A stretch of 64,000 nucleotides of DNA, taken from NCBI RefSeq assembly GCF_025766255.1, contig NW_026516766.1, forward strand, positions 1 through 64,000, in the 5' to 3' direction. Below are positions 6,473-26,406 of the stretch, piece by piece (positions within the stretch are counted from its first letter, which is position 1; every line of letters begins with the position of its first letter). Source of the stretch: Zychaea mexicana. Its lineage: Eukaryota > Mucoromycota > Mucoromycetes > Mucorales > Lichtheimiaceae. Under the pieces are notes generated by a model. The model was not told the DNA's origin. It did not search any database and saw only the letters and a list, made by a program, of their open reading frames with translations. A program made the position numbers and the translations under genes.

Positions 6473-9400
6473 ATGAACATCTCATGTCCAATTGGATCCG
6501 AGATCAATTCGGTCTCGTTTTCATTTTACCAGCCACATGAAATCAAGAAAATTTCGGTCAAACAAATTGTGAATCCTGTGCTGTTTGATGCTCTCGGTCA
6601 TCCAACGAAAGGTGGTCTATACGATCCAGCACTTGGCCCTTTCCAAAAGACACAAATGTAAGACTTCCGCCGTTTCCTACTATCCAAGTTTTCTAGGGGA
6701 GCTCAAGTTCTTACCCTTTCTTCTGTTTTCAATTCCTTAGCTGTGGAACTTGTTCTCAGAGTCACCACAACTGCCCAGGCCACTTTGGTCACATCGAACT
6801 TCCCGTGCCGACGTATAACCCAATGTTTTTCGATAACTTGTATGCCCTTATTCGAGCCAAATGTGCATACTGCAACAAGTTCCGCATGGGACGACATATG
6901 GTAACTGGCGAAAGAAAGCAAAGCTTTTTTGAATGAGCAAAGTGATTTGTAGCCTAATATTAATTATCTCCCTACTTTTATTTTTGACAGATGCACAAAA
7001 CCGTTGCGAAATTGACGTTGCTTCAACATGGTCTGATCCGCGAAGCCCAGGCTTTGGATGAAATGAATGTTGAAAGCAAAAAGACCGGAAAAAAGTCAAA
7101 GGATGGCGAGCATACTCTCGAAGACGAGGTGGAAGTAAACGGAAAGGAAGCCGAAGAAGCAGACAAAGCACTCGACCGTATGGGTATGTATAAAGGATAC
7201 TTTATACCGTTTAGAAAGGGATAAATGACTCACAGTAAAACCTCTTCTCAACAAAATGAAATAATTTAGACAAGTACGTCAAGGATTGTATGGCCGATAC
7301 AGCCGCCCGCAAATTCGCCAGCGACAACTATAAAGTGACAGTTATCAACGATGCCCGTAAACGGGTCATGATGGAGTTCATGAAATACTGCGTCACGTCA
7401 AAGCGCTGCGGCAACTGTGGAGGCATCTCGCCACCCATTCGACGTGATGGCGCTGCCAAACTGTTCGAGCTCAATCTTTCGAAAAAGGACCAGATGACAA
7501 TGCGAGCACGAGCCAGCGCTACTACTACGAGGGATGCATCGGACAGCGATAGCGACGACGATTCATCCTCAGGAGCAAAGAAGTCATCGTCAGCACTTGG
7601 CAGCCAACGATACTTGAATCCGATCGAAGTACGCAAGAGCATTCAGGATTTGTTCCAGGAGGAACCAGAGATTACGACATTGTTGTATGGCGCAAGAAAC
7701 CCCAGCGTCCCATCCCAAGTTAGACGAGCAACATACCACATGTTCTTTATCGAAGTCTTGTCTGTTTCGCCCACACGTTTCCGCCCACCTTCGGTCATGG
7801 GTGACAAATTGTTTGAATCACCTCAAAACGAACTCTTGAGCAACATCTTGAATGGCGCACATCAAGTCCGAGACGTCTCCAGCAATCTGCAAGAGGCTAG
7901 CAAAGAGGATCCCGTCAATAAGAGACAAGTTACGCGTCTTCAGGACATGTTTGTCAACAGCCTCATCACGTTGCAGCACGCCGTCAACTCCTTCATCGAT
8001 TCGACAAAAAACCCGCAATCATTTGGTCAGAACGCGCAGCCACCAGCTGGCATCCGTCAGGCTTTGGAGAAAAAGGAGGGTCTGTTTAGAAAGCACATGA
8101 TGGGTAAGCGTGTTAACTATGCTGCGCGCTCAGTCATTTCGCCCGATCCAAATATCGACACCAACGAAATCGGTGTACCTCCCGTCTTTGCCAAAAAGCT
8201 GACCTACCCTGAACCCGTCACGGCACACAACATCAAGGAACTGCGACAAGCTGTGATCAATGGTCCCCTCAAGTGGCCAGGTGCAACCCACGTCCAGCAC
8301 GAAGACCAGTCAATTGACGTACTTGCCAATTTGTCGGTGGAATCGCGTATCGCTCTTGCCAACTCGCTGTTGGCACCACAGAGCTCGCAGGCAGCACAAG
8401 GCAGCAACAACCCTTATGCTACGCGTACCCAGACGATCAACAAAAAGGTGTTCCGTCACTTGCGCAACGGTGACATGCTTTTGCTCAACCGCCAGCCTAC
8501 TCTTCACAAGCCATCCATCATGGCTCACAAAGCGCGCGTGTTGCCTGGTGAAAAAACGATTCGTATGCACTACGCCAACTGTAACACGTACAATGCCGAT
8601 TTCGACGGTGACGAAATGAACATGCACTTTCCGCAAAACGAAATCGCTCGTGCTGAAGCCGCCCTGATCGCCAATACTGACAACCAGTATCTCGTACCAA
8701 CCAGTGGTAACCCTTTGCGTGGTCTGATTCAAGACCACGTTGTTTCCGGTGTGTGGATGACATCGCGCAACACTTTCTTTACCAAGGATGAATACCACCA
8801 GCTCTTGTATGGATCCCTGCGTCCTGAAGCCGACAATACTGGCAACGGTCGCATTTTGACCATGCCTCCGACCATTTGGAAGCCTGTTCCCTTATGGACC
8901 GGAAAACAAGTGGTAAGTTTCGCTCTCTTGTAATGTAAGCTTCAAAGAAGGAGTGAGGATCTAATCGTAACCAAATGTCATGCAGATCTCCACGATTCTT
9001 CTGAATTTGACCGTTGGCAAATCTCCACTCAACATGAAGTCAAAGAGTAAGGTCCCAGGTCGCTTCTGGGGTCCTGATGCTAAAGAGGAAGAAAATGTGA
9101 TGGTGATGGATGGCGAACTATTGATCGGTATTCTTGACAAGTCGCAGTTCGGCGCTTCCGCATATGGTCTGGTGCACTCGATTTATGAATTGTATGGTCC
9201 TGAATCCGCGGGCATGATCCTCAGTATTTTTGGTCGCCTTTTTACCAAGTATATTCAGTCGCATGGTTTCACTTGTCGTATGGACGATTTGCGATTGACT
9301 ACAGAAGGTGACAAATGGCGTCGGGATTTGCTGACGGATGGTCAAGGCCTTGGTCGGGAAGCACACCTTGAGTTCCTTGGTCTCACTGAGACGGCCAAGA

Positions 9401-12193
9401 CGGCTTCGAAAGAATCACTTAAGAAAGGTAAAACTTTTAGAAGCAATTTTTCTTAATAAGCGTAAGTGTATCTAACGAGAAGCAATACTTTCCTTTGTAG
9501 AATTCAACTTGCGTATGGCTGAAGTTGCTCGTGATGATAACAAACTGGCTGGTCTGGATAACGCCATGAAATCCAAGGTTAACAAGCTTACATCGTCTAT
9601 CACTGAACAGTGCTTGCCCAACGGCTTGGTATGTTTTCTTTTTCTCAAAAACGTTTGAAACTATAGTGGTGATGATTGTTTTAACCACCCCGCGGCTGCA
9701 TATAACAGGTTCGTAAATTCCCTGACAACGACATGCAAATGATGACGGTGTCTGGTGCCAAGGGCTCCAACGTCAACGCAGCCCAGATCTCATGTATGTT
9801 GGGTCAGCAAGAGTTAGAAGGTCGACGTGTACCGTTGATGGTATCGGGTCGCTCTCTGCCATCCTTCAGACCTTACGACACAAGCGCACGAGCCGGTGGT
9901 TTTGTTGCTGGCCGTTTTCTGACTGGTATCCGTCCACAAGAATACTATTTCCATTGTATGGCTGGTCGTGAAGGTCTTATTGATACTGCTGTCAAGACCT
10001 CTCGTTCTGGTTATCTGCAGCGTTGTTTGATCAAGCATATGGAAGGTTTGCGTGTACATTATGATCATACTGTTCGTGACTCGGATGGCTCGATCCTGCA
10101 ATTCCATTACGGTGAAGACTCGCTGGACGTCATCAAGGCCAAATACCTCAACGAATTCAGCTTCTCTGCCCACAACTATGAGATGCTGTCCAATAAATAC
10201 AACCCCAAGGCTGCGCTCTCGTCGCTCGATACCAAGATTGGTGAAGAGTATGCCAAGAAAGCCCTCAAAAAGCCTAGCAAGTACGATCCACCGCTTTCCA
10301 AGTTCAATCCTGCAACTCATTTGGGTGTTGTCTCTGAAAAGTTCGCATTGGCCATGAAGAAGTACGTTGAAGGAAACCCAGACAATATGCCGTTCGACAA
10401 GAACAGCGAAATGACCAAGAACAATGAACGATTCGCATCGCTCACCAAGGCCAAGTTCAAGGCATTGATGCACTTGAAATACCTGCACAGCTTAGTCGAT
10501 GCTGGTGAAGCTGTTGGCTTGTTGGCTGCACAATCGGTTGGTGAGCCATCCACACAAATGACGCTCAACACTTTCCATTTTGCCGGTTACGGTGCTGCCA
10601 ACGTCACCTTGGGTATCCCTCGTCTTCGTGAAATTATAATGACTGCCGCCAAGGTTATCAAGACACCTACCATGACCATGCCTATAAAACCTGAAGTATC
10701 TCCCGAACAAGCCGCCGACTTTTGCAAGGTTGCTACCAAGCTCACTTTGGCACAGATCGTGGACGATGTTTCTGTTACTGAGTCGATGACTTCCAAATCT
10801 GCTGAAAACAACTACCGCCGATCCAAGGTCTACACAATCCGTCTCAACCTGTTTGACGAGAAGGAATATGAGGAAGAATACCGAGTACATGCCAAGCGTA
10901 TCAAGGAAGTCCTGGCGACTACCTTCTTGAAGCAGCTTGAGGAGGTCATTCGTAAGGATATCAAGGGCTCACGCAAGGTTGTCAACATTGCAGAACCATC
11001 CAAGGTCAGCGACTCAAGCAAGGATTCGGAGGAGGATGACAGTGCAAATGTTGCAGCAGCATATGATTCCGATGAAGGCGACCAGGACGCCACAAACACT
11101 CGATTAGCATCGAAGACAAAGGAGAAGGCCAGTTACGACGAGCCGGATGATGAAGATATAGAGGTGGCAGAAAAGTTAAAGACGCTCGAAGACGAAGAAG
11201 CTGAATTGGAGGCAGTTGCACAGAGCGGACAAGATGACGAAGAGATGCAAGAGGCGGCTGACAGCACAGGGGAGAAGAACTGGGGTCAGAGTGCTATCAA
11301 CAATAGCCAGTATGTGACCCGATGGGACTTTGATGCCGAGAACGGTGCATGGTGTGAAATTGATATGAAGGTAAAAAAAGATGTAAAAGAACTGCTCGTT
11401 TGCATACGATGGATTGCTGACGACATCCCGGCAAATTTGTTTATAGTTCCCCGCAGATACCAAGAAGATTTTGATGGCGAGCTTGATTGAAAAGGTCTGC
11501 CCTCGTGTTGTTGTACATGAAATCAAGGGTATCCAGCGCTGCTTTGAATATCTCAACCGCATCGAGAACGACACTTCGGTAAGTTTGACAGCACAGCAAA
11601 AAGCGAGTGCAAAAGGAACGCAATGTCCTAATTTCTTTTATTTTCGCTTAAACATAGAAACAATTACAAACTGAAGGTGTCAACCTTCGCGGCATGTGGA
11701 ACCACAGCGACTTGCTTGATATCAACTTCATCGATACCAACGACATTGCAGCCATTCTCAACACATATGGTGTCGAGGCTGCCCGTAATGCCATCATTAA
11801 GGAAATAGCTGGCGTCTTTGAAGTATACGGTATCAAGGTGGACCGACGCCATTTGACTCTGATTGCAGACTACATGACATTTGAAGGTGGTTACAAGCCA
11901 TTCAACCGCATGGGTCTTGCATCCAACACCTCGCCCTTTTTGAAAATGAGTTTCGAATCAACTTGTAAATTCTTGACGGATGCCACATTGTAAGTTATTA
12001 CTACTACAGTCTGCGATATATGTTATATTTGAAAGGGATGGTTTGTGCTCACGCCACGCACACACATTTTTACTCTAGACACGGCGACTTTGATACGCTG
12101 GAATCCCCATCTGCGCGTATTGTGATGGGCAAGGTCGTCGAAGGTGGCACCGGCTCATTTGAAGTATTACAACCTCTCACCAGCACAGCATAG
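6473..12193 (+). CDS. RPA190: DNA-directed RNA polymerase I largest subunit
   Basis: Ten exons (6473-6657, 6741-6900, 6991-7183, 7270-8912, 8986-9427, 9501-9628, 9709-11370, 11447-11578, 11658-11989, 12079-12193) give 4992 nt, 1663 residues, normal for the Rpa190 family. It forms the catalytic core that transcribes the 35S rRNA precursor in the nucleolus. Visible: start MNISCPIGSEINSVSF typical of Pol I, zinc-binding CGTCSQSHHNCPGHFGH, the acidic Pol I-specific insert, RQPTLHKPSIMAH, the Mg-binding NADFDGDEMNMH near 8590, the bridge-helix/trigger-loop region GREGLIDTAVKTSRSGYLQR, QSVGEPSTQMTLNTFH and a long acidic jaw insertion (about 11020-11270) characteristic of Rpa190. Stop TAG at 12191. 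All key residues are intact. Confidence 0.97.
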
Positions 12194-20070: not shown

Positions 20071-20072
20071 TA
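20071..20072. repeat. TA target-site dinucleotide, left side of element
   Basis: TA immediately outside the left inverted repeat, matched by TA at 26275-26276 outside the right one. This is the target duplication expected of Tc1/mariner transposition. The flanking TTA on both sides makes a 3-bp reading formally possible. Confidence 0.75.
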
Positions 20073-20251
20073 CAGGATTTTTCCTAATGATTGGCGGGGC
20101 TTTTTTTCCCATCATGGCGGGGCTTTTTTTTCACTTTGTCGTTGGGGGTGTTTGTGATTGGCGGTGTGATTTTCGTGAATGGCAGGAGGAAAAAAATACA
20201 ATGGCGGCCGAGTTACAGGTTGATGGCAGAATAATAAATTCATAATGGCGG
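20073..20251 (+). repeat. Left terminal inverted repeat
   Basis: Pairs with 26096-26274. The first ~135 bases look identical, including GATTGGCGGGGC, a second ATGGCGGGGC block, and the GTCGTTGGGGGTGTTTGTGA stretch. A few differences appear in the inner 45 bases (GTTACAGG here against ATTTCAGG). Internal TGGCGG motifs recur six or more times and are candidate protein-binding sites. Confidence 0.92.
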
Positions 20252-20289
20252 CCGTAATTTCAGGTTGATGGCAGAATAGTAAATCCATA
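20201..20289 (+). repeat. Tandem 44/45-bp subterminal repeat, left end only
   Basis: Two units, 20201-20244 and 20245-20289, each beginning ATGGCGGCCG and containing CAGGTTGATGGCAGAATA. A third partial unit starts at 20290 with ATGGCGGTTG. The right end has a single unit, so the left end has gained one copy. Confidence 0.9.
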
Positions 20290-20464
20290 ATGGCGGTTGG
20301 GTAATTATGGTAATCGTTTTGCTTTCTTTTTCTCAGCATGACAGTTAATGATTTTCGACAACTCTATATTTTATTAAAAAAAACATATATATATATATGA
20401 AAAAAAAAGTAAAAGGAAAAAATATAGAAGGGCAGTAAAAAAACATATAAAATATGAAAAAAAA

Positions 20465-22024
20465 CTACAGCATCTTCTCTCCTTCTATACACCTAGGCAC
20501 AAACGTAAGGGAGTGGCGAATCCATCCTTGGCAATCTTGGGCGGTGACTTCATGGGCGGAGTTGATGATGCGCGGCAGCAAGGTGTCGTCTGTGGTCAGT
20601 AAATGGCGTTTGACACCTGCCTTGAGCTTTGACCAAAATTCCTCAATTGGATTGAGGAATGGGCTGTAGGGCGGGAGAAAGAGGATCTCGAATCCTTGCT
20701 TGGCAATGGCATCCCGAACTTCATCAGTCTTGTGGATAGCGGCATTATCCAATACCAAGGTCCTTCCACCCATACCATTTTCGGTGAGCACCTTCATCAT
20801 CACTTCCAAAAATTCGATAAAATGCTCCGCCCGAGTGCCGATTTTGCCCATCACCTTTTCTTCACCGTCACGCGTCTTGCGTTTCTTGGAAGCGACAACC
20901 GCTTGAGGTCTCCGGAGACTCAAGTTGATTACACCTTCACCAGTGATGGCACCCAAGATCGTAATATTGACCCCACGCGACTTAGAAACCAAGGCCTTGG
21001 CGGGCTCACCTCGTCTCGATCGACCAAAGTTACGCTTGATGTGCATGTTGAAGCCAGCCTCATCAATAAAGACGCATTTGTGGTAATTAATGCCACTGGC
21101 TTCAAATGCGTGTGCCCAGTTGATCCGGGAAGCGATCGTTTCATCGGAGTTGCGGTACTCAGAGATCCGTTCCAACTTCTTCATAGTAAGCCCGCATTTG
21201 CTAACAAGGTGCTTCTGGAGGCCACTTTGAGTGATGCTGATGCCGAATCGATCAACAAGCGATTGCTGTGCTTCTTTGAGGGTCGCATCTGACTTGGTAT
21301 CGTAATACGCCTGGAGAAATGCTGTGTGTTCGGGTGTCAAGGTTGGTGGAGGACCGGGAGATTTACCCATTGTACTTGGGAGATATGGCTCACCGTCGAC
21401 AAATCGTTTCCAGTATCGCTGTGCGGTTCGTTCAGGGATCAACAAGTCGCGCCCAGCCTCTGCAGCGTTTAAAGTGACATTTTGGATTCTATCGATCAAT
21501 TGGATAATTTCTGGATCTCGATACACTCGATGAGCTCCTATAGGAATTAAGAGTTTTGGATTAGATATCAGAAGCAACTAGAGGTTTAATGTTATTAAGT
21601 AAGGTTTAGTAATAGTAAGTAGCATACTTTTTGGGATGACAGGCTCTTTTGGAGGGTTTTTGCGAGGTCTTCCCCTTCCCTTTTTCACTGATTCCGTTTG
21701 GTTTTCTGCGGCTTCAGTACCAGGCGAAGTGGACGTTGGAGGATCGATTACCTTGGATGTAGAAATTTCCTGTGAATTACCAACCATTAATTAATAAAAT
21801 ATATAGAATACATATCATGTTCTACAGAATTATTGACCAATATATTTTGTAAGTACCTGCGATGTAGTTTTTATCTTGGTCATCGATACAAGGGAGTGTA
21901 CACCACCAGTATGGCCACTAAATTCATCGGATACGATTTGGTACACGTCGTCTACTTCCATCTCCTCTTCATGCATATCAACGTCAGTATTGTATGGTAG
22001 CGTTAAATTTTTGATGGATAACAT
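20465..22024 (-). CDS. Tc1/mariner (IS630-type) DD34E transposase with AT-hook
   Basis: Three exons (22024-21857, 21769-21628, 21537-20465) sum to 1383 nt, 460 residues. Exon 1 is acidic. Exon 2 carries an AT-hook, KKGRGRPRKNPPKE. Exon 3 opens with a paired-type HTH (LNAAEAGRDLLIPERTAQRY) and a second HTH (LVDRFGISITQSGLQKHL), then the RNase H-like core with FIDEAGFN, TLVLDNAAIHK and PPYSPFLNPIEEFWSKLK. The last Asp and Glu are separated by 34 residues (DD34E). All three catalytic acids are present and no frame is broken, so it may be active. It binds the terminal repeats and moves the element by cut-and-paste at TA (family knowledge). It lies about 200 bp inside the left end, reading toward it. 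Confidence 0.93.
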
Positions 22025-22347
22025 GGTGATAGTTGATGTAAAAAATCGAGTGATAATAATACTGTATGGACAAGTACAATAAATAAAATGATTCAGCTTT
22101 ATACATACTTTTCAATTCTGTGAATTTGTTATTGAACAGAACTTGTAAGGTAACACCAAATGGGACAACAAACAGTAGTTTTTTTAAATCCATTAGATCA
22201 ACTCGCAATAATGTCACCCATGTTAAACCCACTAAGCAAGATACAGTTTGTAGCTAATTATAAAAAGTATCCCACCATTGTTACATAAAGCAAGTATTTG
22301 TTTAGAGACAACCAGCAGAGAAAAAAATATTTATTAATAAAAAAAAA
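22025..22347. other. Spacer between transposase and HTH gene
   Basis: AT-rich 323 bp holding the transposase promoter and the 3' end of the next minus-strand gene. No further gene was recognised. Confidence 0.5.
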
Positions 22348-22848
22348 CTACGGATGTTGTAAAGCTGCCTCCAGAATACCATCATTAACCTTCGTCAAGA
22401 AGTGGTTACTCTTGGGAGCACGGGGCCGTTTGGGTGGTGGTGGCATGTGGGGGCGGTAGATGCGGATGAGTCTTGATGCCGTTCCCTTCGGCATCTTCAC
22501 CTTGGCGCCGGCTTGCTCGATTGTAAGCCCATCCCAAAAATAGGCGCGCAGCACCACTACGACCTCGTCTTGGTTGTACCCGCGGCGGGGTGCTCGTTGC
22601 CGTCTTCGTGGTGGTGATGGCGATGATGGGGCAGAGGAGGCAGAGGAGGCGGAGGAGGATGGAGACCGCGATGCTGATGATGATGATGATGATGGTGATG
22701 TTGTAGTGTCTTCTTCAAAGTCACCAAAAGGAAGAGCCTTGCTCAATTCCTGAGTATTGTATACATCGAGACTGCCTTGCATGTCCACGTCTAATTCAAA
22801 CTGCATGAGGTCGAGGGAGGAGTCGTTTGTAGAAATGATATCGGACAT
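22348..22848 (-). CDS. Element-borne small HTH protein 1
   Basis: Single-exon frame of 166 residues. The first half is acidic then Ser-rich (about residues 53-75). Basic RRRQRAPRRGYNQ is followed by a predicted helix-turn-helix: VVVVLRAYFWDGLTIEQAGA then KVKMPKGTASRLIRIY. The pattern A-G/A-x-x-x-K-[IM]-P-x-x-T-A-x-R matches the first HTH of the element's own transposase (AEAGRDLLIPERTAQRY). A basic Pro/Lys tail follows. There is no catalytic domain. Function unknown; a repressor, end-binding cofactor or DNA-targeting subunit are all possible. It points away from the repeat cluster at 23088-23664, which is likely its promoter region. Confidence 0.65.
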   Translation of the reverse strand: MSDIISTNDSSLDLMQFELDVDMQGSLDVYNTQELSKALPFGDFEEDTTTSPSSSSSSASRSPSSSASSASSAPSSPSPPRRRQRAPRRGYNQDEVVVVLRAYFWDGLTIEQAGAKVKMPKGTASRLIRIYRPHMPPPPKRPRAPKSNHFLTKVNDGILEAALQHP

Positions 22849-23087
22849 GATTAATAGTAAATTTAGAATGAGTTATTACAAGCAATGGATTTGAATCATC
22901 GGTTTATATACTTTTTTGTTCCGTACCTACAGATATATATAATTAAGCAATCCACAATGGTATCTACAACAGATGACAACATTCCATTATAACGCATAGA
23001 CTTGAAGTTTCAACATAGAGTATATATGAATGCTACACCAGATGGGACAAAAAAATCACAGCAAAGCATAATTACGTGTATGTGTGA

Positions 23088-23664
23088 AGATCTAGTAAGA
23101 AGTATAATGCAGTGTTGCACGAACTGGGACGGCATAAAGTAATAGCGGAGGGTGATTCCATTCCATCTTATGTGGTTCCATTCCATTGTTTGAATAAGAA
23201 AATAAAATATAACAGCAAAGCATAGTAGCGTGTATGCGTGAGGATCTACCAAGAAGTATAATGAAGCGTTGCACGAAGTGGGACAAAAAACCGACAGCAA
23301 AGTATAATTACGTGTATGTGTGAGGATCTAGTAAGAAGTATAATGGAGTGTTGCACGAACTGGGACGGCATAAAGTAATAGCGGAGGGTGATTGCATTCC
23401 ATTTCGTGCAACGCTTTATACTTCTTACTAGATCCTCGCTGTGGTTTTTTTTTGTCCCATTTCGTGCAACGCTTCATTATACTTCTTGCTAGATCTTCAT
23501 ATGGATACAAGCTATTAAACTTTGCTGTGATTTTTTTTGTCCCATTTCGTGCAACACTTCGTTATATTTTATTTTCATATACAGATAATGGAATGAAATC
23601 ACCTTCCGTACTTTATGCCGCCCCATTTCGTGCAACATTTCATTATGCTTCTTGCTAGATCTTC
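23088..23664. repeat. Cluster of direct and inverted ~40-bp repeats inside the element
   Basis: A motif reading GATCTAGTAAGAAGTATAAT then GTTGCACGAA and TGGGAC occurs forward at about 23088-23130, 23241-23284 and 23322-23367, and in reverse at about 23401-23438, 23455-23499, 23539-23570 (partial) and 23618-23664. Linking sequences (GGCATAAAGTAATAGCGGAG, and poly-A with ACAGCAAAGCATA) also recur. Forward copies face reverse copies around 23385-23400, so the locus could fold as a large hairpin. It separates the minus-strand from the plus-strand cargo genes. Confidence 0.9.
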
Positions 23665-23818
23665 ATGTGGATACTCTACCCTATTCTTCTACAGTACTGT
23701 AGGTTTGCAAGGATCATATCTTACTTATAGTTTATTTATTTCCTACCTGAAAATTTCTGATTATAAACTTTCTTTTTACTCTATCTGTCTGAATTCTCAC
23801 TACGTAGTCCTTTCCAGC

Positions 23819-24289
23819 ATGGCAAGCATTGTCCTTTCTCATAAAGAAATACGTGAAGCTGTCAATGTCAGTGAGGGAGAAGACCCTTACATTGGTATGT
23901 TTATATAATCGAAGATTATATCCTTTGGCCACTATTCTAATGCTTTAATAGAGGAATTTATAAGAACCTTAGATGCAATGCGGCTGGAAGAAGATTACGA
24001 ACCAGTCGACGAGCTCCCCTGTGTTAAGGCAGTTCAAGATCTAGTGCAACTGGTGGAACAGCTCCAAGAAGAAATCACAACACTGACAACTGTCAAAAAA
24101 CGAACATATACTAAATGGAACAAGGATGATGAAGAAATCAAGAAAGCAATTAAAGATTGTGCCCTTGAAAGACGCGACTACGGTAGAACCAAAGTTCCAG
24201 CAGCTACAATGCATCGCTGGGTTATGCAATTTATCGATACTGAGGAAGGTCAAGCAGTTTTGCGAGAGCATCATTTGAAAACCAAATAA
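23819..24289 (+). CDS. Element-borne small HTH-like protein 2
   Basis: Two exons (23819-23894, 23952-24289), 414 nt, 137 residues. The N-terminal half is acidic and helical with a probable coiled coil (VQDLVQLVEQLQEEITTL). Then KKRTYTKWNKDDEEIKKAIK leads into a possible HTH, with RTKVPAATMHRWVMQF resembling the recognition-helix part of the other cargo HTHs ([IV]P-x-x-T-x-x-R/W). The splice is clean (ATT G|GTATGT ... TAATAG|AG GAA). No known family was recognised. Its promoter would fall in the repeat cluster immediately upstream. Confidence 0.55.
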
Positions 24290-24654
24290 ATGCATTTCTT
24301 TTGTCAAAAAATAATTTTTTTTCTTCATACAGTAGTCTGTCTCTTTATTTTTGTGAATCATCACAAATACTGGATAAGATAACCTTACAAACATCTATTA
24401 CTGGATCTTTTTGGTGGTGTCACAAACCAGCAATATAGTTTAACGGCATATGCGTAAGAAAACTAAGCCGTTTGTAACTATTTTGTATCCCGAAAGCATG
24501 TGGTTACATAAGAGAAAACCATAAACTATTTAAACCAAAGACAAGTCTATTTTCCGAATGTATAAATCACTCTATCTTTTTCGTAACAAAGAACAACAAC
24601 AACAACAACATCTCCTTTACAAAATTTCTGGAATTTGAATTGTGGGATGAATCC
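24290..24654. other. Spacer between cargo genes 2 and 3
   Basis: 365 bp, AT-rich, with a short (AAC)n run near 24592-24609 just before the next gene. The frame of gene 3 remains open upstream across part of this run, so its true start may lie further left. Confidence 0.45.
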
Positions 24655-25138
24655 ATGTTGGAACCATTCGATCCGAGTAAGTTCAACTAAACATTACTAT
24701 CAAAAAACAGCGCGTTACTCATCTATTTCCATTATATATAGCTACACCTACGGATATTCTTCCGGAAGAAGACCTGGGCAACCTGGTTTACCTTGTAGTT
24801 GACAAAATGGAAACCAGTACGTCCCAAACACATTTTACCATTATTTAAAAGATGCGTGCAACTTGTTAATTTTTAGTTTACTGATGTAACAAAAACATAT
24901 CTTCTGTCTAGGTCAACTGGTCCATAATCAAGGTAGCCAGGAAGACCAGGTCAGCAACAACAATTATGGGGTTAACAGAACCTTTCATACTGACTCCAAA
25001 CAAGCATACTTGATCCACCTCTACTTTAATATGGGGTGGTCAATACGAAAGGCAGCGGAGGAAGCAAAGATCCCGAAATCAACAGCACAAAGATACATAA
25101 AAAATAAAAAAAATAAAAAAAATAAAAAAAATAAATAA
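24655..25138 (+). CDS. Element-borne small HTH protein 3
   Basis: Three exons (24655-24676, 24742-24816, 24912-25138) total 324 nt, 107 residues. An acidic N-terminus (PTDILPEEDLGNLVYLVVDK) precedes an HTH-bearing C-terminus: KQAYLIHLYFNMGWSIRKA then AEEAKIPKSTAQRYIKN. This closely parallels the transposase HTH (AAEAGRDLLIPERTAQRY). It ends in a Lys/Asn run from an AAATAA-type microsatellite, which reads as (KNK)n. No other domain is present. The small size and lone DNA-binding fold suggest binding to the same repeats as the transposase; this is inference. Confidence 0.6.
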
Positions 25139-25415
25139 ATAAGCTTTCTTGGAAAAAATTACTTTGACTGGTTTGAGTCATAGATAAATGGTGGTGGTAT
25201 GAGTGAGTAGGACTATAGGAATATTCAGGGACAAAATGGTTGTAGATAGCAATAATGATCAATTAAAAATATGATATAACATCTAGTCTTACTATTTTTA
25301 TATATTCCTGTAACCATAGATTTATATTGTGGTATGAGTGTGGGTGTGGGTGTGAGTGACATGTGAGATTGAGCTTGGGTTACATTTTAAAAACATATAA
25401 AGCAGCATACCTGCA
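25139..25415. other. Spacer between cargo genes 3 and 4
   Basis: About 280 bp with GTGTGGGTGTGGGTGTGAGTG purine/pyrimidine-alternating repeats near 25337-25361. No gene was recognised. Confidence 0.4.
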
Positions 25416-25822
25416 ATGGCAAGAATTGTTTCACTCATTCTCAAGATGTCGCTTAATCTCTGGCGTTACTTCATTACGTCGTATCACATCGTCACAGCTC
25501 TGCAAATAAAAGGTATTACATCTATTCTTATTAATCTTATTTATTCTTCTTTTGTTTATACTTCTATTATAGAGCGCCATCAAACAGATCTCGAATATCG
25601 CGTATACTTCGACAAAGAACTATATTTCCTACTAGATGAAATAGATGGAGAGGAGCTGCTGGATGTAATCTGGCGACGACCAGTCAAGCTGCCAGTGAAG
25701 ACCAAAGAACCGTTCACCGAGTTTTGGCCGAATGGAATGAAGTCCGCTGGACATTGCTTCTAAAGCAGGATCGGCTTTTGTGGATTGAAGAAATTTTCGC
25801 AAGATTGAAGTTTCTCTTGTGA
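25416..25822 (+). CDS. Element-borne small protein 4, probably frameshifted HTH protein
   Basis: Two exons (25416-25512, 25573-25763) read as 95 residues in the open frame: MARIVSLILKMSLNLWRYFI, then an acidic helical stretch ending ELLDVIW. Past that the open frame turns into an unpatterned Pro/Lys/Phe tail. Another frame over the same bases reads LATTSQAASEDQRTVHRVLA EW and continues to a stop at 25820-25822. That alternative tail looks like the same HTH type as its neighbours (A-x-S/E-x-x-R-T-V/A-x-R). The simplest reading is a one- or two-base indel near 25665-25680 that cut off the HTH. A missed tiny intron is also possible. Confidence 0.45.
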
Positions 25823-26095
25823 TGTGAAGTACCTCTTGTATTGTAAATAAAACCTTTTACATACACATGATCATTATTTTTCGTTTGCGATATCTTTTTT
25901 TGCGATTCTTTTATGGTTCTCAGAGCATCTATGTTGCTATATAAGGGTGATGTGCTAATCATCTAGTAGAAACTTGCCACTCCTATTATCATGTCTCATA
26001 CATCTTCCCATGTTTGTGATGTATTTAATGAGATGAACTGCTTTAGTATCTAATGTCATTTTTTAAAAATGATGCCGCTAATGATATAATTCAAA
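25823..26095. other. Right subterminal spacer of the element
   Basis: AT-rich 273 bp between cargo gene 4 and the right inverted repeat. No gene was recognised. Confidence 0.4.
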
Positions 26096-26274
26096 CCGCC
26101 ATTATGAATTTACTATTCTGCCATCAACCTGAAATTCGGCCGCCATTGTATTTTTTTCCTCCTGCCATTCACGAAAATCACACCGCCAATCACAAACACC
26201 CCCAACGACAAAGTGAAAAAAAAGCCCCGCCATGATGGGAAAAAAAGCCCCGCCAATCATTAGGAAAAATCCTG
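26096..26274 (-). repeat. Right terminal inverted repeat
   Basis: Reverse complement of 20073-20251, ending GGAAAAATCCTG next to TA at 26275-26276. It has one ATGGCGGCCG subrepeat unit against two at the left end. Confidence 0.92.
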
Positions 26275-26406
26275 TATTAAGAAAAAAACTATAATCACAT
26301 GTCTTCTATTACTACACACTACCACTATCGCCTTCAGCCGTACTCGCCTCTCTCTCTCTCTCATTTTTCTTTCTTTTTGTGTACATAATATACTCTTCTC
26401 CTCCAA

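What the first reader, a model, noticed from the sequence alone, without database searches (positions are those of the whole stretch)
20073..26274. Tc1/mariner-type element carrying four small HTH cargo genes
Seen: ~179-bp near-identical inverted repeats, TA on both sides, an intact DD34E transposase, and four extra small genes (22348-22848 -, 23819-24289 +, 24655-25138 +, 25416-25822 +). Known: Tc1/mariner elements are normally 1-2 kb with one gene. Inferred: each cargo protein seems to contain an HTH like the transposase's own first HTH (core pattern A-x-x-x-[IV]P-x-x-T-A-x-R), so they may be derived from it and compete for, or co-occupy, the element ends. This could be a self-regulated or multi-subunit Tc1 system that I do not recognise as described.
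Basis: partly seen in the sequence, partly recalled or inferred. Interest (0 to 1): 0.87.

Follow-up and report, generated by a model that had tools for sequence, protein, structure and literature searches.

The report
Multi-gene Tc1/mariner transposon in a fungus
A jumping gene of a type that normally carries a single gene here carries three more small genes, two of which look like stand-alone versions of the transposase's own DNA-gripping part; relatives of the set are also found in a related genus of moulds.

Summary
The element at 20073-26274 is real: TA-flanked, long inverted repeats, DD34E transposase, in Zychaea mexicana (Mucorales). Nine other near-identical copies share its gene order. 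Diverged relatives (transposase 87-97% identical, cargo 29-56%) keep cargo1 and cargo2 in the same places, and a cargo3-type HTH. Cargo1 and cargo2 show purifying selection between subfamilies, and Circinella minor has both, apparently linked to each other or to a transposase. The fourth cargo gene (25416-25822) is not supported. Three larger elements with the same kind of ends have no cargo match. By profile comparison cargo1 and cargo3 share the transposase's first HTH (96-97%); cargo2 does not. Most likely the cargo proteins bind the element's own repeats and help or limit transposase; which repeats, and which effect, is untested. Multi-gene Tc1/mariner elements are known in ciliates, so this is a new variant, not a new kind.

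The parts
20071..20072 (.). TA target-site duplication, left
   Evidence: 15 of 15 elements cut out have TA just outside both ends, allowing one changed terminal base in C244
20073..20298 (+). left terminal inverted repeat with nine TGGCRG sites at offsets 20, 43, 87, 108, 130, 152, 174, 197, 219 (22-bp phase, all facing inward)
20465..22024 (-). DD34E transposase; exons 20465-21537, 21628-21769, 21857-22024 (GT-AG introns placed by eye, about 460 aa)
   Evidence: Pfam DDE_3 4.9e-27; catalytic residues; relatives in Mucorales
22348..22848 (-). cargo1, 166 aa: acidic N-terminus, Ser/Pro-rich linker, trihelical HTH (93-134), Pro/Arg-rich tail
22968..23680 (.). central intergenic array of direct and inverted repeats between the divergent gene pairs; 236 or 472 bp longer in three other copies
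23819..24289 (+). cargo2, 137 aa, exons 23819-23894 and 23952-24289; its Circinella relative is modelled as helical with a long coiled-coil-like helix; HTH not shown
24655..25138 (+). cargo3, 107 aa, exons 24655-24676, 24742-24816, 24912-25138 (by eye); C-terminal HTH
26090..26274 (-). right terminal inverted repeat with seven TGGCRG sites; the nine other C6-type copies hold 45 bp more here
26275..26276 (.). TA target-site duplication, right

Best explanation
A recently active, multi-gene Tc1/mariner (DD34E) transposon lineage of Lichtheimiaceae. Besides the transposase it encodes three accessory proteins. Shown: the gene set and order in ten near-identical copies and, less completely, in diverged relatives; purifying selection on cargo1 and cargo2 between subfamilies; relatives of cargo1 and cargo2 in a second genus; HTH homology of cargo1 and cargo3 to the transposase's first HTH by profile; phased arrays of sites at both ends. 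Inferred: cargo1 and cargo3 arose from copies of a transposase HTH; they bind the element's own repeats, most likely the 22-bp-phased TGGCRG arrays, beside or in place of transposase. There they either help to build the transpososome over a long element or cap transposase activity; cargo2, with its long helix, may bridge subunits.
For: Ten near-identical copies with one gene order. Diverged relatives C237, C36, C101, C76 keep cargo1 and cargo2 in the same places and a cargo3-type HTH after cargo2. Between subfamilies, cargo1 dN/dS 0.29-0.31 (Fisher p 1.4e-8 to 4e-8), HTH part 0.26 and 0.11; cargo2 0.17, 0.22, 0.47; cargo3 weak. Third-position excess in nucleotide alignments of cargo1 and of cargo2 C6-C101. 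Circinella minor: cargo1 and cargo2 with consecutive locus tags on a contig of 6,368 bp; transposase and cargo2 on contigs of 44,717 and of 39,555 bp (same contig inferred from equal length and near tags). hhalign cargo1-transposase 96.4%, cargo3-transposase 96.7%, cargo3-cargo1 94.8%. Cargo1 trihelix at pLDDT about 90. Nine TGGCRG sites in the left 320 bp against 0.285 expected; 0 of 1000 random placements as regular. The recognition helix is the most invariant part of cargo1, 8 of 14 positions (8 sequences, some near-duplicates), while TIR arrays are found in all six element types examined.
Against: No binding, expression or transposition data. Cargo2 has no detectable profile match to the HTHs and only weak fold matches. 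Three of the 15 elements cut out (C244, C4, C251) have the same kind of ends but no cargo1 or cargo2 match, so the arrays also occur without these genes. In C237 the transposase (dS 0.16) and ends are close to C6 while cargo1 is far (dS 1.16), so the ends follow the transposase, not the cargo. Cargo2 is interrupted by about 1.1 kb in C237 and changes frame in C36; cargo3 is not an unbroken frame in C36, C101 or C76. Among the close copies C36, C101 and C76 dN/dS is 0.39-2.7 on few changes. HTHs of this class are common, so origin from this very transposase is not shown. Third-position excess is absent for cargo3 and for cargo2 C6-C237. Circinella DNA was not seen.
Confidence: 0.5

Rival explanations
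1. The accessory proteins bind the central intergenic repeat array and control the element's own expression, as autorepressors or as sequence-specific anti-silencers like VANC of Arabidopsis VANDAL elements.
For: The array sits between the two divergent gene pairs, where promoters should be; genes run outward, so the ends are not promoters. The C6, C237 and C36 types each have their own tandem or inverted array, and array and cargo diverged together in C237 while the ends did not. VANC targets often form tandem repeats that differ between related elements (PMC5735166, abstract).
Against: The cargo1 recognition helix is conserved while central arrays are unrelated between the three types. Array and cargo are contiguous, so joint divergence may be only linkage. 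The hexamer TGGGAC shared by the arrays was not tested against an array-aware null.
Confidence: 0.27
2. Transposase alone occupies the TIR arrays; cargo proteins act on host targets and travel as selected passengers.
For: Ends track the transposase, not the cargo, in C237; arrays also occur in C244, C4 and C251, which have no cargo match. Long-TIR Tc1 elements carry up to three transposase-bound direct repeats (PMC3828361, passages).
Against: Homology of cargo1 and cargo3 to the transposase HTH; 18 of 22 cargo1 loci lie within 3 kb of a transposase match, and 3 of the other 4 are weak matches.
Confidence: 0.13
3. The extra ORFs are captured or spurious sequence without function.
For: The fourth ORF behaves so; cargo1 is broken in 3 of 10 C6-type copies; cargo2 and cargo3 are disrupted in some relatives.
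Against: dN/dS well below 1 at dS about 1 or more, third-position excess for cargo1 and one cargo2 pair, conserved order, and relatives in a second genus.
Confidence: 0.06

Closest known systems
Ciliate TBE (Oxytricha) and Tec (Euplotes) elements
   Same: Tc1/mariner DDE transposase plus extra ORFs; in TBE all three genes have dN/dS much below 1, the 22kD ORF is reversed, and a tandem-repeat region lies between the 22kD and 57kD ORFs (PMC4724952, abstract and passages)
   Different: TBE extra ORFs are a 22kD protein of unknown function and a 57kD zinc-finger/kinase protein, Tec has a site-specific recombinase (PMC7325037, passages); TBE ends carry telomeric repeats. No direct protein comparison was made.
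Long-TIR Tc1 elements (Bari, Sleeping Beauty, Minos, Paris, S)
   Same: Tc1-like, direct repeats in the TIRs that are bound by transposase in Bari1 (PMC3828361, passages)
   Different: Three direct repeats per end; here up to nine sites per end and three further genes
VANDAL elements with VANC (Arabidopsis)
   Same: Element-encoded, evolving DNA-binding accessory protein; repeat arrays differing between related elements (PMC5735166, abstract)
   Different: VANDALs are Mutator-like (recalled); here a DDE_3 transposase and HTH-type accessories
En/Spm TnpA, Harbinger Myb-like protein, Tn7 TnsB arrays (recalled, no call)
   Same: Second DNA-binding protein on subterminal repeats, or 22-bp site arrays at ends
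   Different: Unrelated transposase families; not compared here

Membership tests
Tc1/mariner (IS630-Tc1-mariner) | DDE_3-type catalytic domain | tested here: met
   PF13358, E 4.9e-27, above its cut-off
Tc1/mariner (IS630-Tc1-mariner) | DD34E catalytic triad | tested here: met
   D159, D264, E299 nearly invariant in a 30-sequence alignment; 34 residues between
Tc1/mariner (IS630-Tc1-mariner) | TA target-site duplication | tested here: met
   15 of 15 elements cut out, one with a changed terminal base
Tc1/mariner (IS630-Tc1-mariner) | Terminal inverted repeats | tested here: met
   185 nt, 98%
Tc1/mariner (IS630-Tc1-mariner) | N-terminal HTH DNA-binding region | tested here: inconclusive
   HTH_32 E 0.0017, below its cut-off
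Tc1/mariner (IS630-Tc1-mariner) | Single gene, 1-2 kb (typical, not defining) | tested here: not met
   6.2 kb with three further genes
Ciliate TBE/Tec | Homologous accessory ORFs | not tested
   TBE/Tec proteins were not compared
Ciliate TBE | Telomeric C4A4 repeat in the TIR | tested here: not met
   none seen by eye in the TIR sequences
pogo/Fot | DDxD triad (recalled) | tested here: not met
   third residue is E
VANDAL/VANC | Mutator-like transposase (recalled) | tested here: not met
   transposase is DDE_3

The most novel reading that the evidence does not exclude
A eukaryotic cut-and-paste transposon in which the transposase's DNA-binding HTH has been copied into stand-alone subunits (cargo1, cargo3) that assemble, with cargo2 as a bridging or dimerising partner, along arrays of about nine sites two helical turns apart at each end, forming a multi-subunit, self-regulated transpososome that allows a Tc1/mariner element to grow well beyond its usual size.
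Probability: 0.3. Interest if true: 0.85.

Novelty: new variant of a known kind. Interest (0 to 1): 0.63.

Why it matters
Tc1/mariner elements are the model of a minimal, self-sufficient transposon: one gene, short. A lineage that has kept accessory genes, two of them kin of the transposase's own DNA-binding domain, would show how a one-protein transposition system becomes a multi-subunit one, and would give a compact, testable case of self-regulation by domain duplication. The phased end arrays give a direct binding target to test.
Full report
What is there. The window lies in a 50.3-Mb, 305-contig genome. A protein hit on a contig of 346,526 bp, the length of C237, is named Zychaea mexicana, which is in the Lichtheimiaceae, Mucorales. 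The element has a 185-nt inverted repeat, 98% complementary, TA on both sides, and a transposase with Pfam DDE_3 (E 4.9e-27) and a DD34E triad.

Copies. The 179-bp repeat has 40 scored matches in the genome, a lower bound. I cut out 15 elements with two ends; TA flanks all 15, allowing one changed terminal base in C244. Ten of them (window copy C6, C291, C247 twice, C289, C146, C124, C118, C68, C123) are close to 99% identical and align gene by gene; C123 also carries inserted DNA. Two more, C237 and C36, are diverged relatives with the same layout. The last three (C244, C4, C251; 9.0-12.1 kb) have the same kind of ends but no cargo1 or cargo2 match, and only C251 has transposase matches, in pieces. 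One search gave 24 rows for cargo1, which I merge into 22 loci; 18 of 22 have one of 20 closely related transposase matches (picked from the 118) within 3 kb. Of the other four, C101 has a TIR and cargo2 but no transposase match, and C21, C39 and C262 are weak matches, of which the two fetched (L065, L066) look decayed. Of 17 cargo2 loci, 16 lie within 6 kb of cargo1.

Diverged relatives. C237 (7.7 kb) and C36 (5.05 kb) were read in full, C101 and C76 in part. All four keep cargo1, a central array and cargo2 in the same places, and a cargo3-type HTH follows cargo2. They are not all intact: cargo2 is interrupted by about 1.1 kb in C237 and changes frame in C36, and cargo3 is not an unbroken frame in C36, C101 or C76. 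Against the window, transposase exon 3 is 97% identical in C237 and 88% in C36; cargo1 is 48-52% and cargo2 29-56%. Between C6 and C36 the transposase has dS 1.68 and dN/dS 0.04. Between C6 and C237 the transposase has dS only 0.16, while cargo1 has 1.16: the left module (end and transposase) and the cargo module have different histories, which points to recombination between subfamilies.

Selection. With pairwise local protein alignment, cargo1 dN/dS is 0.29-0.31 in three comparisons (Fisher p 1.4e-8 to 4e-8); the HTH part is 0.26 and 0.11. Cargo2 exon 2 is 0.17, 0.22 and 0.47. Cargo3 exon 3 is 0.42-0.43 in two comparisons with p about 0.03, and saturated in the third. An earlier multiple alignment gave 0.23-0.36 for cargo1 and 0.17-0.64 for cargo2 between subfamilies; among the close copies C36, C101 and C76 the ratio is 0.39-2.7 on few changes, so recent constraint is not visible there. 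A count by codon position in nucleotide alignments, free of protein alignment bias, has third positions above the others for cargo1 (0.49 against 0.25 and 0.29; 0.61 against 0.30 and 0.27) and cargo2 C6-C101 (0.49 against 0.26 and 0.32). This is not so for cargo2 C6-C237, cargo3, the fourth ORF or a noncoding control. Cargo1 and cargo2 are thus genes under constraint between subfamilies; cargo3 is likely, on position, splice signals and HTH; the fourth is not supported.

Second genus. Cargo1 found 4 proteins (of 7,979 candidates scored, a capped list) and cargo2 found 9 in a database of 5.8 billion. Circinella minor INT45_008647 (cargo1) and INT45_008648 (cargo2) are each on a contig of 6,368 bp. 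INT45_009645 (transposase, 76%) and INT45_009652 (cargo2) are each on one of 44,717 bp, and INT45_013961 (transposase, 74%) and INT45_013965 (cargo2) on one of 39,555 bp. That these are the same contigs is inferred from equal lengths and near tags; Circinella DNA was not read, and selection was not tested there. Circinella umbellata has a cargo2 relative. Transposase relatives at about 45% occur in other Mucorales (Mucor, Rhizopus and others).

Ends. TGGC[AG]G occurs nine times in the left 320 bp of the window element against 0.285 in shuffles; in the eight elements examined all sites in the terminal 320 bp face inward. In the window's left end spacing is 21-23 bp, or 44 where one site has decayed. 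That end alone is more regular than all of 1000 random placements; over 12 ends of six element types the best period is 22.03 bp (76 sites, R 0.905). Bari and four other Tc1-like elements are reported to have three direct repeats per end (PMC3828361, passages only). The sites are absent from the four central arrays examined. An exact 14-base end, TACAGGATTTTTCC, occurs 51 times in the genome against 1 for the backwards pattern.

Centre. Genes run outward from the middle. Between the two pairs lies a repeat array that differs in sequence between the C6, C237 and C36 types and is 236 or 472 bp longer in three of the other nine C6-type copies. TBE elements of ciliates also have a tandem-repeat region between their 22kD and 57kD ORFs (PMC4724952, passages).

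How it works. I think it most likely (about 0.5) that the accessory proteins bind the element's own repeats, with the end arrays as the first candidate, because cargo1's recognition helix is its most conserved part and the end arrays are the sequence that the types share. Whether they help or limit transposase cannot be told from sequence. The main rival (about 0.27) is control of expression through the central array, as a repressor or as an anti-silencing factor like VANC (PMC5735166, abstract only). Two results weigh against the end-array reading: in C237 the ends follow the transposase rather than the cargo, and C244, C4 and C251 keep arrays without any cargo match.

Novelty. It is a Tc1/mariner element by the defining features that gave a clear answer, with a new gene content. 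Multi-gene Tc1/mariner elements are known in ciliates (PMC4724952 abstract and passages; PMC7325037 passages). I found no account of this in fungi in the ten searches listed, but a key fungal survey could not be read.

Noticed in passing
L025+L026 (C251), L023+L024 (C4), L021 (C244): Elements with the same kind of ends (9.0-12.1 kb) hold very long inverted repeats: 4.7 kb at 99.8%, 4.0 kb at 99.98%, and 2.1 kb at 98.8% at the very ends of C244. They could be real giant palindromes or partly an assembly effect.
   Followed up: partly
G000: C68:300118/309589, C240:742894/748353, C52, C57, C168, C263, C14, C305, C24, C147, C102, C235: Distant transposase matches (29-38% identity) often come as inverted pairs about 2-15 kb apart, as in composite elements or elements with transposase inside long inverted repeats.
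   Followed up: no
L020 (C237) against the window element: End plus transposase and the cargo block have very different divergence (dS 0.16 and 1.16), a sign of module exchange between subfamilies.
   Followed up: partly
L014 (C124) and L015 (C118): Two copies share the left 20-bp flank but not the right one: ectopic recombination or an assembly join.
   Followed up: no
C4 element, ORF 9277-10725 (L024): A 12.1-kb element with this family's ends carries a large ORF that by eye resembles another DDE transposase with a chromodomain-like tail; no family search was run.
   Followed up: no
L065 (C21) and L066 (C262): Decayed cargo1-like sequences without a transposase match on the same contig.
   Followed up: partly
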